From Desulfobacca acetoxidans DSM 11109 (GTDB taxonomy: Bacteria > Desulfobacterota > Desulfobaccia > Desulfobaccales > Desulfobaccaceae), in assembly GCF_000195295.1 (NCBI RefSeq), contig NC_015388.1, positions 2,418,001-2,482,000 of the forward strand: a stretch of DNA of 64,000 bases, read 5' to 3'. This document shows positions 4,168-59,350 of this stretch, one piece after another (position 1 is the stretch's first letter; each line of letters starts with the position of its first letter). Below the pieces are notes generated by a model. That model saw nothing but the letters and a program-made list of their open reading frames with translations, was not told the DNA's origin and did no database searches. The translations under genes and the position numbers were made by a program.

Positions 4168-4677
4168 CTAACCCGCAGCCGCCCTAACCAGGCACACCCG
4201 ACGCCCGTCCCCCTCCCCTGCCCCTGCCCGGACCACCTGGTCCGCCAGGCGGGCCAGCAGCCGGCCGAAGTGCTGGTTGGCCACCTGCGGCGGCAGATTA
4301 GCCTGCAAAAACCAGAGCGCCGCCCGCTGTTTTACCTGGACCAAGCCGCCCATCATGGTGCGGAACAGGCGCCGCCGTTCCGCCAACGGCGTCTGCTCGT
4401 CATAGAACAGGCTGCACGGCCCTAACAGGATGACCAGAGCCCGGTCCACCTTCGCCAACTCCGCCGGCAGACCCTCCCATACCAATTGCACCAGTTGATG
4501 ACAGGTGAAAACCCGGGACACCTGCACCCGGGTCAGCACCTGATCCGGCAGCAGACCCCGTTTCCGACCTTCCCGCACCAACTGATATGGGTCAAAGCGA
4601 TTAGCGGCATCTACTACCAACACCGCCAAACCTCGGGCTACCCCCCAAGCCGCAGCGGCGGCAGTCAGGAAACGCAT
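4168..4677 (-). CDS. RecA/Rad51-like fold protein without an intact P-loop
   Basis: Residues LAVLVVDAANRFDPYQLV, LTRVQVSRVFTCHQLVQLV and ALVILLGPCSLFYDEQTPLAERRRLF follow the pattern of short RecA-superfamily proteins often encoded near lexA-type genes. The first two match a VVDxANRFD strand and a vSRaFTCyQ helix, and the last is a Walker-B-like strand. A normal Walker A (GxxxxGKT) is not visible; the corresponding position reads TFGEGMRF. The ATG at 4677 is the first sensible start. The frame stays open upstream into the G-rich repeat arm, so the 5' end may have been replaced when the S23 element inserted. It lies downstream of lexA on the same strand, suggesting a damage-response role such as an ImuA-like accessory. 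That role is inference. Confidence 0.5.
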   Translation of the reverse strand: MRFLTAAAAAWGVARGLAVLVVDAANRFDPYQLVREGRKRGLLPDQVLTRVQVSRVFTCHQLVQLVWEGLPAELAKVDRALVILLGPCSLFYDEQTPLAERRRLFRTMMGGLVQVKQRAALWFLQANLPPQVANQHFGRLLARLADQVVRAGAGEGDGRRVCLVRAAAG

Positions 4678-4695
4678 GCCCTCGCCGAAGGTAAG

Positions 4696-5142
4696 AAGGG
4701 AAGAGGGAAAAGGGATTAGGGAAAAGGGATTAGTTAAAGCCGATTCACTTTTTAAGGGAAGATAGCAGCCCATGTAGTATTCGTCCTGTTTCCGTGGCAA
4801 GTTTTAAAAGATCACTGGCTTCTTCATCATTGAGATAATTTAATTTTTGCGCGATTAAAATCTGAGTTTCAATTTCCCACAGAGATCCCCTGGCATGCCC
4901 CAAAAATTGTTTGTATTCTCCAGTTGAAGATCTCCCATAACCTTCAGCAATGTTACTCGGAATCGAAACCGCCGCCCGCCGCATTTGACTCACCAGGCCG
5001 AACATCTCGTCTCCAGGAAATGCCCGAGTACGCTGATATATCTCGACGACTAACTCCATGGCCTTCTGCCAGACAATCAGATCTCGATATGACCTTACTG
5101 CTTTTTCTTTCATTAATCCTCTTCCCTTTTCCCTCTTCCCTT
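4696..5142 (-). mobile_element. S23-encoding element with perfect 20-bp inverted ends
   Basis: The sequence AAGGGAAGAGGGAAAAGGGA at 4696-4715 recurs as its exact reverse complement at 5123-5142. The 447-bp interval between and including them contains one complete S23 four-helix-bundle gene and almost nothing else. The element separates lexA from the RecA-like gene. S23 genes are best known from intervening sequences in 23S rRNA genes, which are also bounded by complementary ends that pair into a stem. This copy is outside any rRNA. No transposase is encoded, so movement would need help in trans. Target duplication is not obvious because the arms are low-complexity. Confidence 0.6.
4745..5113 (-). 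CDS. four-helix-bundle protein, S23/23S-rRNA-IVS family
   Basis: The 122-aa protein starts MKEKAVRSYRDLIVWQKAME and contains the family signatures YRDLIVWQKAMELV, FGLVSQMRRAAVSIPSNIAEGYGR and YKQFLGHARGSLWEIETQ, matching the usual 115-125 aa S23 length. The fold is a pentameric four-helix bundle with a basic surface; its biochemical role is unsettled. A second, broken copy lies at 59143-59310. The start is ATG at 5113, preceded on the minus strand by the G-rich arm (GGGAAGAGG), which could double as its ribosome-binding site. It sits between lexA and the RecA-like gene inside paired inverted repeats, which fits a selfish or hitch-hiking element rather than part of the SOS operon. Confidence 0.9.
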   Translation of the reverse strand: MKEKAVRSYRDLIVWQKAMELVVEIYQRTRAFPGDEMFGLVSQMRRAAVSIPSNIAEGYGRSSTGEYKQFLGHARGSLWEIETQILIAQKLNYLNDEEASDLLKLATETGRILHGLLSSLKK

Positions 5143-5151
5143 CTCCCTCTC

Positions 5152-5760
5152 CTACAACGACCGATACACCCCCACCACTCTCCCTAAAATCTGCACCAAC
5201 TCCGCGGCCTCCTCAGGAGAAAAGCGCAGCGGTGCAAAATTCGGATTGTCGCCCCTCAGGACCAAGCCGCCCGCCTCTTCATAGACCCGTTTGACCGTAG
5301 CCTCCTCGTAGATCAGCACCGCGGCGATGTCGCCCCGGGCTACCCGCGGCTGTACCCGCACCATCACCAGGTCGCCGGGCAGGATGAGCGGGGCCATGCT
5401 GTCTCCGGCAACCCGCAGGAGAAAGACCTCTTCGCCCTGTACCCAGGAGCGGGGCAGTGGCAGCGTGTCTTCCACCTGTTCGCTGGCCAGCAGCGGTTGA
5501 CCGGCGGCGATCTGCCCCAAAATCGGCACTTCCACCACCGACTCCGCCTGGCGCCCGGTGAGGGCCAAACCCCGGGAGCGGCCCGGCTCCCGGTGCAGGT
5601 AGCCCTTGCGTTTCAGGGCGCTGAGGTGGTCATCGGCCGCCCGCGGCTGGATGCCGAAATGGGCCGCCACTTCACGTACCGTCGGCGGATAGCCCTGCTG
5701 CTGACAGAACTCCTCCACAAACGAGAGAACCGCCTGTTGTCGAGAGGTTAAAGTCTTCAT
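5152..5760 (-). CDS. lexA: LexA-type SOS repressor
   Basis: The 202-aa protein has an N-terminal winged helix-turn-helix (residues 1-65, TSRQQAVLSFVEEFCQQQGY...REVAAHFGI) and a C-terminal S24 self-cleaving domain. The cleavage bond is Ala86-Gly87 in ILGQIAAGQPLLA. The catalytic dyad is Ser121 (VAGDSMAPL) and Lys157 (ATVKRVY). It represses DNA-damage genes until RecA-stimulated autoproteolysis. The promoter is directly upstream with almost no leader, so translation probably starts at the 5' end of the mRNA. The HTH recognition helix (QPRAADDHLSALKRKG) differs from the enterobacterial one, so the operator is unlikely to be the E. coli SOS box. Downstream on the same strand come the S23 element and a RecA-like gene. 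Confidence 0.92.
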   Translation of the reverse strand: MKTLTSRQQAVLSFVEEFCQQQGYPPTVREVAAHFGIQPRAADDHLSALKRKGYLHREPGRSRGLALTGRQAESVVEVPILGQIAAGQPLLASEQVEDTLPLPRSWVQGEEVFLLRVAGDSMAPLILPGDLVMVRVQPRVARGDIAAVLIYEEATVKRVYEEAGGLVLRGDNPNFAPLRFSPEEAAELVQILGRVVGVYRSL

Positions 5761-19378: not shown

Positions 19379-21015
19379 AAAATCAGGAATTAGGGAAAAG
19401 GGAACAGGGAACAGGATGTAAAATACGTATGGTGGACACTTTTCACCAGTCCCCGGCCCTCTGGCTAACCCTGGGGCAGGTATTCATGGGTCTCGCCCTG
19501 TTATTGGCCCTCGGGTATTACCTCTGGCCCGCTCTGGTCCCCCTGGCTACCCGCATCGCCAATGACGACAATTACTCCTCAGGCTTAATCATCCCCTTAG
19601 TCATTGGCTATATTACGTATCGCAAGTGGCCGGAACTGCGCCAGCCCTGGCGGCCCTCCTGGTGGGGGCTGGCGGTCCTGACTCTCGGGTTCGGCCTGTT
19701 TTTCTTAGGCGCAGTGCTCACCATCGAATACATTTCGCAACTATCCCTGGTAGTGCTGTTGGCGGGCGTCTTGTGGCTGTTGGGCGGCTGGCAGCGGGTG
19801 AAGCAGTTGAGCTTCCCCCTCCTCCTGCTGGCCATGGTTATTCCCCTGCCCCAGTTCTTTATCAGCAAGTTGACGCTCCGGATGCAGCTGGCCTCCTCGC
19901 AACTGGCCGCTGAGATGCTCCGCCTCGCAGGATATCCGGTGGCCTTGTTCGGCAATGTCATCGACCTGGGAGACCGCCAACTACAGGTGGTAGCGGCCTG
20001 CAGCGGCCTGGGGTATCTCTTCAACGCCCTGGGGTTGGGAGTCATCTTCTGCTACTTCTTCCAACGGCAGGCCTGGAAGGTGGTTCTGCTGCTGCTCGCC
20101 ATGATCCCCTTCGCCATCGTGGGCAATGCCACCCGCCTGGCCTGCATCGGCATCTGGCCGATTTTTGAGAAAGGCTTCTGGCATGCCAGCTTCGGCCTGA
20201 GTATCTTTATTCTAGGTTTTGACTATTTAAGGGGAATCAACTGGCTCTTGAACTATGTCAGCCCGATGTCAACCAGGGAAGAGGGAAAAGGAAAAGGGGA
20301 AAAGGATGCAGACCTGATTCATGAAATGCCAATCCCAAACCCCGAGTCTACGCTTCCAGGTCCTCGGCCGCGTTTTTCATCTTATGCCTCTCTGGCTGCC
20401 GGGTTGGTACTTGTCCTGGTGATCAGCCCCTTTGCCGTCAGAGGAGTGCAAGTAACGCCGGTGCCCTTGAAACAGAGTTTTGAGCGTTTTCCCATGCAGT
20501 TAGGCCCTTGGGAGGGACGGCACGTCCACGTTGAATCCTCCATAGTGGCTGCCACCGGTGCCGACAAGGTCCTGAACGCCGATTTTACGAATCCGGCTCA
20601 AGGTCCGGTCTCCCTCTGGATCGCCTATTATGAAAATCAAAGGTCCAGGGCCTCGGTCCACTCCCCTATGACCTGCCTCATCGGCAGCGGCTGGAAGACG
20701 GCACACACGGAAGTATTTGAGTTAGCGCCAGGAAAACCGATAAACTTTTTAATCCTGGATCAGGGCGGCAACCGGATGGCAGTATATTACTGGTATTTCG
20801 AGCGGGGCCGCTGGCTGGCCAGCGACTACGGCCACAAACTGGGCATCGGTCTCGATCGGCTCCGGCTCGGCCGGGCCGACGGCGCCTTGGTGCGATTGAC
20901 CACCCCGGTAACCGGGGATGTGGGACAGGCCAAGGCCCGGTTGGATAGTTTCCTGCACCAATTACGTCCGATACTGCCAGAGTTTATAAAGGATGACAAA
21001 AGATCAGAGAAATAA
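19375..21015 (+). CDS. xrtD: exosortase fused to EpsI domain (XrtD-like)
   Basis: The 546-aa membrane enzyme is a transpeptidase-like protease that processes proteins with PEP-CTERM-type tails. Residues 30-295 are the multi-pass exosortase with the catalytic Cys209 in VVAACSGLGYLFNAL, Arg254 in GNATRLACIGIW and His270 in FWHASFGLSIF. Residues about 335-546 are an EpsI domain. The VPLPGA tails of two proteins in this window suggest specificity D. The GTG at 19375 overlaps the previous gene; the first 18 residues are encoded by a G-rich repeat, so ATG 19429 may be the ancestral start. A second G-rich repeat encodes the linker REEGKGKGEKD between the two domains. A terminator follows. Confidence 0.9.
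   Translation: MKNQELGKREQGTGCKIRMVDTFHQSPALWLTLGQVFMGLALLLALGYYLWPALVPLATRIANDDNYSSGLIIPLVIGYITYRKWPELRQPWRPSWWGLAVLTLGFGLFFLGAVLTIEYISQLSLVVLLAGVLWLLGGWQRVKQLSFPLLLLAMVIPLPQFFISKLTLRMQLASSQLAAEMLRLAGYPVALFGNVIDLGDRQLQVVAACSGLGYLFNALGLGVIFCYFFQRQAWKVVLLLLAMIPFAIVGNATRLACIGIWPIFEKGFWHASFGLSIFILGFDYLRGINWLLNYVSPMSTREEGKGKGEKDADLIHEMPIPNPESTLPGPRPRFSSYASLAAGLVLVLVISPFAVRGVQVTPVPLKQSFERFPMQLGPWEGRHVHVESSIVAATGADKVLNADFTNPAQGPVSLWIAYYENQRSRASVHSPMTCLIGSGWKTAHTEVFELAPGKPINFLILDQGGNRMAVYYWYFERGRWLASDYGHKLGIGLDRLRLGRADGALVRLTTPVTGDVGQAKARLDSFLHQLRPILPEFIKDDKRSEK
19388..19420 (+). repeat. G-rich AGGGAA repeat at the exosortase 5' end
   Basis: Three tandem units of the form AGGGAAAAGGGAACAGGGAA lie within the first codons of the gene, matching the arm sequence of the S23 element at 4696. 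A related run at about 20274-20306 encodes the linker between the exosortase and EpsI domains. Confidence 0.6.
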
Positions 21016-37083: not shown

Positions 37084-37191
37084 CTTTCCTCCATCTATAA
37101 TAAACGAATCTGGATAATACAGTCTCTGGTCTCCGAATAATGGTCTCTGGTTTCTTGTTTCCGGTTTCTGGATGATTTTCATGACCTGCAA

Positions 37192-38325: not shown

Positions 38326-38664
38326 GGAAAATCTGTTTGACCTCCTTGTTTCTTATTATTCGCAGATGCACAATGTTGTTTCTTTCACCCCTCACCCTGA
38401 ACCTCGAGGGGACACTAAGGACCAGCATTTCTATAAAACGTAAAGGTAGCACATCACCCTCACCTGGTGGACCGCCCACTTTTACTCTTCCCTGTTCCTT
38501 TTTCCCTGTTCCCTCTTGTCACAGACGCCCCCATTTAGGTAGACCCTCACTTTTCCCCTTTCCCCATTTGGGGAAAGGAGAAATGAGGGGGGGGAGAAGG
38601 AAGGAAGAAGAAGAAAGCATGACCATAAAACCCTTTTCAATCGTTACAAATCAAATTTTTCGGA
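38326..38664. other. intergenic region with G/C-rich repeat arms
   Basis: Holds a CCCTCACCC-type repeat (about 38383-38420), CCCTGTTCC-type runs matching the complement of the AGGGAA arms (38488-38516), and a long imperfect palindrome at 38545-38590 whose core is CCTTTCCCC-ATTT-GGGGAAAGG. No gene is seen. Confidence 0.6.
38545..38590. repeat. long imperfect palindrome
   Basis: The core CCTTTCCCC/GGGGAAAGG (38557-38578) is perfect, and the outer arms CCCTCACTT and AAATGAGGG extend it. The same C-rich repeat vocabulary appears at 21555 and 32967. Confidence 0.7.
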
Positions 38665-41804: not shown

Positions 41805-41921
41805 AAAGACAGGGAAGAGGGATTTTATAACAGTGATTAGTTAGCAGTAATAAATCCTGCTACCCTATCCTCATCTCCCTATCTTTTATTCCCTCATCCC
41901 TCATCCCTTTTCCCTGTCTTT
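41805..41921. mobile_element. short inverted-repeat element with AGGGAA arms (MITE-like)
   Basis: AAAGACAGGGAAGAGGGAT (41805-41823) and, inverted, AAAGACAGGGAAAAGGGAT (41921-41903) match in 18 of 19 bases and enclose 79 bp without a gene. The arms share the AGGGAARAGGGA core with the S23 element at 4696-5142. The left arm lies just upstream of the M24 peptidase gene and the right arm supplies the last codons and stop of lutC. Confidence 0.6.
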
Positions 41922-48545: not shown

Positions 48546-48724
48546 ATCAGCGTGCCGGCTGCAAAGCCTGCACCACCTTCTTTCATATAAGTTCCCATGT
48601 TCTGCCGAACACAACGAAGCATAAAAACAGAATCGTGGCGGCTGCTCACAATAATTTTTTTGCTGCTCACGGCTCACGGCTCACTGTTTTTATACAAGCT
48701 TCTGGGTCGAAAAAGGAATTTCGC

Positions 48725-58605: not shown

Positions 58606-59008
58606 ACATTGGCTGGCATGGCTGCTCCGCCTGACTTTGGGCGGCGTCTTTTTTTATGCGGGACTGATCAAAATCTGGCAGCCTTTTCAGTATGCCGCTG
58701 CTATTGAGGCCTATCAACTCCTTCCACAATTCCTTCTTGCTCTGGCCGCCGCCGTTATTCCCTGGATTGAGGTAGTATGCGCCAGCAGTCTGGTCCTATA
58801 TTTCAAACCCCGCAGCGCCCTCCTCACTCTCATATCCCTGCTGGGTATCTTTCTCATCATTATGCTCTTCACCATGGCTCGCGGTCTGGATATCGACTGC
58901 GGTTGCGGGCTGCTGGCCAACCGCCGGGTTGGCTGGCTGGTGCTGCTTGAAGACAGCATGCTGCTCCTGGCGGCCGCCTGGCTGTATCGAGTGCTGAGTC
59001 CTGAGTAA
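58592..59008 (+). CDS. MauE/DoxX-like redox-associated membrane protein
   Basis: The 138-aa protein has four membrane helices and the family motif set: WLLRLTLGGVFFYAGLIKIWQPF at the start, an internal AIPWIEVVCASSLV and GLDIDCGCGLLANRRVG. The DCGC-type pair is characteristic of MauE proteins that support disulfide formation or transport. It overlaps the rhodanese gene. Substrate not known. Confidence 0.85.
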   Translation: MSPAKHWLAWLLRLTLGGVFFYAGLIKIWQPFQYAAAIEAYQLLPQFLLALAAAVIPWIEVVCASSLVLYFKPRSALLTLISLLGIFLIIMLFTMARGLDIDCGCGLLANRRVGWLVLLEDSMLLLAAAWLYRVLSPE

Positions 59009-59142
59009 AAAAACCTTGGGAATACCTTGCAGCACCAGGATCTTCCTGCAATCATGGCATTCTTCTTCCAATATGCTATAATAGAGAAAATTTATGATTC
59101 TGCTTTTTGCTTATTCTGCCGGGTATATGGCAAGCTAGGAAT

Positions 59143-59310
59143 AAAATATCAAGATTTGAAGATCTCATTGTCTGGCAAAAAGCGCCTCAGTGGACCAAAA
59201 CATCTCTTGCGTCAGTCAATAGGATCTCTTCGGGACAGATTACGGGTTACGCAATCAGATGCAGCAGGCTTGTGTGTCCATAAGGTCCAATATCGCAGTG
59301 GGACAGAATG
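59143..59310 (+). pseudogene. broken S23/four-helix-bundle gene
   Basis: One frame reads KISRFEDLIVWQKA (from 59143) and then loses similarity. From 59241 a different frame reads YGLRNQMQQACVSIRSNIAVGQN, the matching middle of an S23 protein (compare FGLVSQMRRAAVSIPSNIAEGY in the intact copy at 4745). The start codon is lost, the frame shifts in between, and the second half after QN is missing. It lies in a 342-bp gap that holds nothing else recognisable. Confidence 0.75.
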
Positions 59311-59350
59311 ATACATCAGGCCTGCCTTTACTCAGGATTCAGGGCTCAAG

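What the first reader, a model, noticed from the sequence alone, without database searches (positions are those of the whole stretch)
4696..5142. Free-standing S23 gene bounded by perfect 20-bp inverted repeats
The ends AAGGGAAGAGGGAAAAGGGA are exact complements and enclose one S23 gene only, between lexA and another gene. S23 genes are known from 23S rRNA intervening sequences whose ends pair. This suggests that the same kind of element also moves in ordinary intergenic DNA. The arm motif is shared with other sites in the window, and a dead S23 copy is present 54 kb away.
Basis: partly seen in the sequence, partly recalled or inferred. Interest (0 to 1): 0.75.

Follow-up and report, generated by a model that had tools for sequence, protein, structure and literature searches.

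The report
Mobile S23 element with heptad-array ends
The small S23 gene between lexA and the next gene is one copy of a very widespread bacterial mobile element: a single gene between two mirror-image runs of 7-letter DNA repeats, which jumps to sites just behind other genes and probably accounts for many of the unexplained 7-letter repeats scattered through bacterial genomes.

Summary
The window (Desulfobacca acetoxidans) has an S23/four-helix-bundle gene (4745-5113, minus) between two inverted arrays of the heptad AGGGAAN, wedged between the lexA stop codon and the next gene. Of 190 non-redundant S23 genes from many phyla, 63% have paired inverted arms (73% if arms may overlap gene ends), against 2-3% for shuffled partners or other ORFs. 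The arms have a 7-nt period, the motif differs from gene to gene (76 distinct heptads in 100), and the two arms of one element match each other in register. Array length peaks at 31 nt, which is five RG[CGT] triplets spaced 7 nt; the solved S23 homologues were deposited with five chains. Empty sites lacking gene and both arms exist outside the genus at lexA and at several sites on cyanobacterial plasmids, two with 5-bp target duplications. Three elements at unrelated sites are 78-82% identical from arm to arm and then diverge. Insertions sit at stop codons. So S23 IVS-like elements do move in ordinary DNA. Mobility is shown by comparison; that the S23 pentamer binds the five-heptad arm is inferred; the enzyme that moves it is unknown.

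The parts
4745..5113 (-). S23 / four-helix-bundle protein gene, 122 aa, the only gene of the element
   Evidence: PF05635 E 3e-40, TIGR02436, NF008911; purifying selection, pN/pS 0.26-0.35 among the four lexA-linked orthologues
5114..5151 (-). Upstream arm: five heptads on the sense strand, AGGGAGA AGGGAAG AGGGAAA AGGGAAG AGGATTA, between the lexA stop and the S23 start codon
   Evidence: Read; TRF period 7 at 5118-5150; run of five RGB triplets
4694..4738 (+). Downstream arm: AGGGAAG AGGGAAA AGGGATT AGGGAAA AGGGATT AG, inverse complement of the upstream arm
   Evidence: 22 nt perfect pairing, 27 nt at 93%; TRF 4696-4733
5152..5760 (-). lexA; its TAG stop (5152-5154) abuts the element. The encoded LexA ends at ...VYRSL; relatives without the element end at varied points, several with a few residues more
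   Evidence: PF00717/PF01726; junction compared in 11 genomes
4168..4692 (-). Conserved ORF downstream (RecA/ImuA-like by recollection; no Pfam match), directly after lexA in genomes without the element; its homologous reading resumes just outside the downstream arm
58996..59340 (.). Decayed second S23 element: gene remnant 59196-59318 with paired ends GAGTCCTGAGTAAA / TTTACTCAGGATTC

Best explanation
This is a short (about 450-490 bp) mobile element with one gene, S23, between two inverted arrays of a heptanucleotide. SHOWN by comparison: the arms belong to the element (empty alleles lack them; homology between copies at different sites stops at their outer edges). It inserts at the 3' ends of genes, mostly in the orientation of the gene before it, with a 5-bp duplication at two sites. 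The heptad letters differ between elements, but the arms of one element stay matched in register, and the motif tracks the S23 protein lineage across unrelated sites. The array format is most often about five repeats (31 nt), with an RG[CGT] triplet in each heptad, on the strand running 5' to 3' towards the gene in both arms. INFERRED: the S23 ring, a pentamer, binds one arm by docking one triplet per subunit (as the TRAP ring docks its triplet repeats), which fixes the count at five and the spacing at 7 while the linkers drift; the linkers must still match the other arm because the two arms pair, as a hairpin in single-stranded DNA or in RNA. The bound hairpin is the form that is moved, or the form that makes an insertion harmless inside a transcript, as in 23S IVS processing. 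Cutting and joining are probably supplied in trans. My probabilities: mobile unit bounded by the arms 0.95; S23 binds the arm 0.5; pentamer-to-five-heptad match is causal 0.4; mobilised by a host or other element's enzyme rather than by S23 itself 0.7.
For: Paired arms in 63% of 190 non-redundant S23 genes vs 1.9% shuffled partners, 2.4% other ORFs, 11% same-strand orientation; 73% vs 2.7% when arms may overlap gene ends; replicated in fresh sets, 67% of 33 and 60% of 10. Period 7: autocorrelation 0.73 at lag 7, 0.69 at 14, at most 0.35 at other lags up to 15. Consensus G-B-N-N-W-H-R with 76 distinct heptads in 100. In-register identity of variant heptads (83 vs 6; heptad-permutation 70 vs 13). 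RGB runs at 7-nt spacing peak at 5 on the expected strand only (50 of 190 vs 10 with six; downstream 47 vs 11) and at no other spacing. Array length mode 31 nt, also in fresh loci. Solved homologues 2gsc and 2rld have five chains each. Filled/empty pairs: lexA site, plasmid sites, duplications GTAAT and TTCTA. Elements L272, L274, L257: 78-82% identity over 416-419 bp arm to arm, flanks unrelated. Stop codon within 15 nt of the outer arm in 60% vs 4% random and 13% other ORFs. Heptad similarity follows protein similarity for pairs at different sites (5.23 of 7 vs 3.73 expected, largest of 5000 permutations 4.30).
Against: About a quarter of S23 genes show no paired arms by this test. The RGB triplet was chosen after looking at the data; in the fresh set the count of exactly five is weaker (16 of five, 5 of six, 9 of four), though the 31-nt length repeats. 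No binding data exist here. Five chains in a crystal entry is not proof of a pentamer in solution. Target duplications are clear at only two sites; at sites 1 and 3 the junctions are altered. No two near-identical copies at clearly different sites in one genome were found that would show recent transposition (the near-identical CRISPR-embedded copies may have spread with the arrays).
Confidence: 0.78

Rival explanations
1. The arms act only in RNA: the element is silent because its transcript folds into a hairpin that RNase III removes or that insulates the operon, and S23 bound to the 5' arm near its own start codon represses its translation. Mobility is rare and incidental.
For: The element RNA folds better than shuffles with arms paired (-150.8 vs -130.4 kcal/mol, z -3.35). 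60% sit within 15 nt of an upstream same-strand stop, so they are probably co-transcribed. The upstream array ends close to the start codon (median 34.5 nt). RNase III excision is shown for a 23S IVS (PMC4990558).
Against: Autoregulation needs no matching downstream arm. Both arms carry the five-triplet format on the inward-running strand, which looks like symmetric ends of DNA. Empty and filled sites and homology cut-offs show repeated movement.
Confidence: 0.35
2. A RAYT/IS200-type (HUH, Y1) transposase of the host moves the hairpin ends in trans, and S23 only protects or presents them.
For: Y1_Tnp copy number correlates with S23 copy number over 40 genomes (rho 0.42, partial on genome size 0.40); REPINs and RAYTs are a precedent for hairpin elements moved in trans (PMC3116915, title and abstract; the rest recollection). 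S23-less hairpins with the same arms exist (L243, L244; the 180-bp element in L279).
Against: G003 and G032 have 5 S23 matches each and no Y1 match. The correlation is modest, over related genomes, and may reflect general mobile-element load. IS200/IS605 elements make no target duplication (recollection), whereas 5-bp duplications are seen at two sites.
Confidence: 0.2
3. A reverse transcriptase in trans (group II intron or DGR type) copies the element RNA; S23 is a cousin of the DGR protein Avd and has the same job.
For: S23 matches bAvd weakly (28 bits, cut-off 40) and NF033474 (25 bits, cut-off 80).
Against: No relation of RT and S23 counts (rho 0.02); 12 of 40 genomes have three or more S23 matches and no RT match, e.g. 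G016, G017, G038.
Confidence: 0.1
4. S23 is itself the transposase or recombinase.
For: It is the only gene; it is conserved with invariant polar residues (Q43, R46, S50, N54, E57, S77, E80) and under purifying selection.
Against: The fold is a plain four-helix bundle with no known catalytic motif (recollection of the family); its DGR relative Avd is an accessory protein.
Confidence: 0.15
5. The heptad arms are ordinary slippage-prone microsatellites next to S23 by chance.
For: Heptamer repeats are known as abundant in some bacteria (PMC4692102, PMC4679880).
Against: Arrays are roughly 15 times denser near S23 than elsewhere (187 arrays in about 76 kb vs 59 in about 390 kb, my estimate of the bases); inverted, in register, 31-nt mode, absent from empty sites.
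Confidence: 0.02

Closest known systems
23S rRNA intervening sequence (IVS) with S23p ORF, e.g. Coxiella burnetii (PMC4990558)
   Same: S23 ORF; about 430 nt; complementary ends (28-bp stem); three tandem heptamers (GACAGAT) just upstream of the ORF, reported there without explanation; transposition origin proposed earlier, as cited there
   Different: Located in intergenic DNA of protein operons, not in 23S rRNA; heptads in both arms with a 31-nt format; empty sites, boundaries and target duplications; present across phyla
REP/REPIN sequences and their RAYT transposases
   Same: A gene flanked by inverted hairpin-forming repeats, plus dispersed gene-less copies of the same repeats in the genome
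   Different: The gene is a four-helix bundle, not an HUH transposase; ends are heptad arrays whose motif changes from element to element
Cyanobacterial STRR and other bacterial heptamer repeats (GGGAATC in Xanthomonas, GGGGATT in Nostoc, TAACTGA in Beggiatoaceae)
   Same: 7-nt tandem arrays, intergenic, few copies; the published motifs fit or nearly fit the heptad grammar found here
   Different: None of the texts read tied them to S23; solo arrays here share the 31-nt format, which suggests they are ends or relics of S23-type elements
DGR accessory protein Avd (bAvd)
   Same: Related four-helix-bundle protein; pentameric barrel (recollection)
   Different: No reverse transcriptase, template or variable repeat in the element; bAvd score below cut-off
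TRAP (trp RNA-binding attenuation protein)
   Same: Functional analogy only (recollection): ring protein reading evenly spaced triplets, number of triplets equal to number of subunits
   Different: Unrelated protein; 5 subunits and 7-nt spacing here; binding not tested

Membership tests
PF05635 / TIGR02436 S23 protein family | Profile match above curated cut-off over the full length | tested here: met
   137 bits vs 33.8 (Pfam); 128.8 vs 24 (TIGR02436)
23S rRNA intervening sequence | Lies inside a 23S rRNA gene | tested here: not met
   Between lexA and a conserved ORF; the 23S genes lie at 3.13 and 3.14 Mb, away from every S23 hit
23S rRNA intervening sequence | Complementary ends and S23 ORF | tested here: met
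23S rRNA intervening sequence | Excised from the transcript by RNase III | not testable with these tools
   needs RNA work
Mobile element with inverted ends | Empty sites lacking gene and both arms | tested here: met
   lexA site and plasmid sites 1, 2, 3, A and B
Mobile element with inverted ends | Target-site duplication | tested here: inconclusive
   5 bp at two sites (GTAAT, TTCTA); junctions altered at others
Insertion sequence or RAYT | Encodes a transposase | tested here: not met
   only gene is S23
Diversity-generating retroelement | Reverse transcriptase with template and variable repeats | tested here: not met
   none in the element; RT absent from many S23-rich genomes
Heptamer tandem repeats (STRR) | Tandem 7-nt units in intergenic DNA | tested here: met

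The most novel reading that the evidence does not exclude
A whole class of mobile elements whose one gene makes a non-catalytic pentameric ring that reads five evenly spaced triplets in its own ends (5 x RGB at 7-nt spacing), leaving four linker letters per heptad free to drift as long as both arms drift together. The class spread across bacteria and their plasmids and left the solo heptamer arrays long known as unexplained STRRs. The 23S rRNA intervening sequences would be the special case of such an element in a ribosomal gene.
Probability: 0.45. Interest if true: 0.93.

Novelty: new variant of a known kind. Interest (0 to 1): 0.86.

Why it matters
It gives a context for one of the commonest 'four helix bundle protein' families of unknown function and for heptanucleotide repeats noticed in bacteria for decades, and it turns the old question of whether 23S intervening sequences are mobile into one that can be tested at ordinary loci with filled and empty alleles. 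If the five-triplet reading is right, it would be a simple recognition code between a protein ring and a drifting sequence. Practically, S23 next to CRISPR genes (noted as an association in PMC10910872) may be insertion of such elements rather than a CRISPR function.

Tried and rejected
Reverse transcriptase in trans: no correlation and many RT-free hosts. Chance microsatellites: rejected by controls. Arms as pre-existing hairpins into which S23 inserts: rejected, since empty alleles lack the arms. Search for S23 in the phage-record collection found none; IMG/VR contigs do hold it. A first same-site filter for the protein/heptad test was too loose and was replaced. Calothrix plasmids L253/L254 looked like two insertions but share a backbone. 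Rfam found no known RNA above threshold in the S23-less 180-bp element. Own-genome elements L002 and L003 have heptads on one side only. Paper searches found no account linking S23 genes generally to heptads or to mobility outside rRNA; only open-licence papers were searchable.

Full report
What is in the window. The window is bases 2418001-2482000 of a 3,282,536-bp single-contig genome; Desulfobacca acetoxidans DSM 11109 has exactly that length (PMC3156406). The S23 gene at 4745-5113 (minus) matches PF05635 with E 3e-40 and TIGR02436. The true unit is a heptad, AGGGAAN. The arms pair perfectly over 22 nt.

Not one case but a rule. PF05635 gives 20 matches in the same genome. Those read here have heptad flanks too, with other motifs: GAGCCGN on both sides at 1.932 Mb, GGACTGA on both sides of copies lying inside CRISPR arrays, and GAGTCCT on the decayed copy in the window; two others have heptads on one side only. 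I then collected S23 genes from 36 of 40 related genomes, 80 loci from a species-wide collection covering Acidobacteria, Planctomycetes, Bacteroidetes, Proteobacteria, Clostridia, Chloroflexi and an archaeal MAG, and 32 viral-contig loci. In 190 non-redundant genes, the 150 bp before the gene aligned with the reverse complement of the 150 bp behind it with score 14 or more in 63%; controls: upstream of one gene with downstream of another 1.9%, same-strand comparison 11%, other ORFs of the same loci 2.4%. Allowing the arms to overlap the gene ends gives 73% vs 2.7%. Fresh loci not used for discovery gave 67% of 33 (shuffled 1.3%) and 60% of 10 (shuffled 13%, because several of these share a motif).

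Form of the arms. Within arms, letters recur at lag 7 in 73% and at lag 14 in 69%; other lags up to 15 give 20-35%. Of 116 upstream arms long enough to test, 100 have best period 7 and 13 have 8. The aligned heptads give G, then not A, N, N, A/T, not G, A/G; 76 distinct heptads occur in 100 elements, and the fit beats letter-shuffled heptads. Upstream arms are G-rich on the sense strand (105 vs 10). Variant heptads are in the same order in both arms: in-register better than shifted in 83 vs 6 (the alignment itself favours register), and better than permuted heptad order in 70 vs 13. So the arms are copies of each other, not two independent arrays of a motif. Among the four lexA-linked orthologues, the Desulfobacca element has changed its heptad in both arms (own-arm score 22 vs 7-14 with the others), while the other three remain similar to each other.

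The number five. Runs of RG[CGT] triplets spaced 7 nt, counted on the sense strand upstream, have lengths 4:33, 5:50, 6:10, 7:5; downstream on the antisense strand 4:33, 5:47, 6:11, 7:5. The opposite strands and all other spacings from 4 to 12 show no such peak. The peak is present in each of three subsets (23 vs 3, 16 vs 5, 11 vs 2 for five against six upstream). Independently of the triplet, the length of period-7 arrays near S23 has its mode at 30-32 nt (59 of 187), with 31 nt the single commonest value, the span of five triplets at 7-nt spacing (4 x 7 + 3); solo arrays away from S23 in the same loci show the same mode, and so do fresh loci (9 of 54 at 31 nt). The count of exactly five is weaker in the fresh loci (16 of five, 5 of six, 9 of four). 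The two S23 structures in the PDB, 2gsc and 2rld, have five chains each. I infer one triplet per subunit.

It moves. At lexA, the three other genomes of the genus carry the element; outside the genus, G004 and G010 pass straight from lexA to the next gene. In cyanobacterial plasmids: TraM-gene site (L258, L269 filled; L261-L263 without); T. variabilis site (L257, L270 filled; L264, L265 empty at 97.6% identity), where the empty AAAGTAATTAACAAAT becomes AAAGTAAT [element] GTAATTAACAAAT, a 5-bp duplication; Calothrix site (L253, L254 filled; L267, L268 empty); Nostoc site A (L272 filled, L273 and L276 empty) with TTCTA duplicated; Aulosira site B (L274 filled, L275 and L277 empty). The elements of L272, L274 and L257, in three unrelated contexts, are 78-82% identical over 416-419 bp, arm to arm. 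The S23 gene in L279 is itself split by a 180-bp S23-less element with the same arms, found at 101 places in 43 plasmids.

Where it lands. The outer edge of the upstream arm lies within 15 nt of a same-strand upstream stop codon in 60% of elements (random positions 4%; comparable points before other ORFs 13%), and the downstream edge lies within 15 nt of a convergent stop in 30%. At lexA the stop codon abuts the arm. Selection against disruptive insertions may add to a true target preference; the data do not separate these.

The arms belong to the gene lineage. For pairs of S23 proteins at least 60% identical but at different sites, heptads agree at 5.23 of 7 positions, against 3.73 by permutation (largest of 5000: 4.30). 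Hence the motif travels with the gene and then drifts.

How it may work. S23 is related to the DGR protein Avd, but RT genes do not follow S23 across genomes (rho 0.02; 12 of 40 genomes have at least three S23 matches and no RT match), while HUH/Y1 transposases do so modestly (rho 0.42) with exceptions. My reading is that the S23 ring holds the hairpin ends and a host or foreign enzyme cuts and joins. The RNA reading, silencing of the insertion by hairpin processing as in 23S IVS, is compatible and may hold at the same time.

What is known. The Coxiella IVS paper (PMC4990558) reports three tandem heptamers before the S23p ORF, a 28-bp stem and RNase III excision, and cites earlier suggestions of transposition. 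Heptamer repeats of Xanthomonas, Nostoc and Beggiatoaceae are described without a link to S23 in the passages read. A CRISPR survey lists the S23 protein among adaptation-module associations (PMC10910872); in this genome S23 elements lie both beside cas genes and inside arrays. I found no account of the general element; the library holds open-licence papers only.

Limits. Genes from related genomes are not independent, though near-duplicates were removed. The triplet was chosen after seeing the data. Loci come partly from draft genomes that often lack rRNA, so the share of S23 genes in 23S rRNA is not measured by their absence here.

Noticed in passing
L021, L022, L023 (genome 3.065, 3.085 and 1.935 Mb): S23 elements with GGACTGA arms lie inside CRISPR arrays and have been amplified in tandem together with partial CRISPR repeats (periods 215 and 480 bp); several copies carry stop codons.
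   Followed up: partly
genome-wide, e.g. 1260362-1260729, 1509658-1509797; window 48665-48684: GAGCCGT heptad arrays are dispersed widely (228 matches vs 17 for the reversed pattern, up to 2 mismatches), often as same-orientation copies spaced about 114 bp; one S23 gene at 1.932 Mb has arms of this motif.
   Followed up: partly
L279:778-960 (Nostoc plasmid pNPM1): A 180-bp S23-less element with heptad arms and a strongly folding core (z -8.7) interrupts an S23 gene; 101 places in 43 plasmids; no Rfam family.
   Followed up: partly
L243 and L244 (genome 1.891 and 0.437 Mb): Short hairpins made of inverted AGGGAAN arrays without S23, one directly behind a stop codon: MITE-like relatives of the window element.
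   Followed up: partly
window 19391-19415, 20274-20305, 37141-37171, 38488-38515, 41890-41909: Solo heptad arrays (AGGGAAN, and a GTTTCTG-type array at 37141) with no S23 gene seen next to them.
   Followed up: no
L206, L107 and others: A minority of S23 genes (13 of 116 upstream arms) have arms with best period 8, and L107 looks like 10 by eye; whether their S23 proteins differ in geometry is unknown.
   Followed up: no
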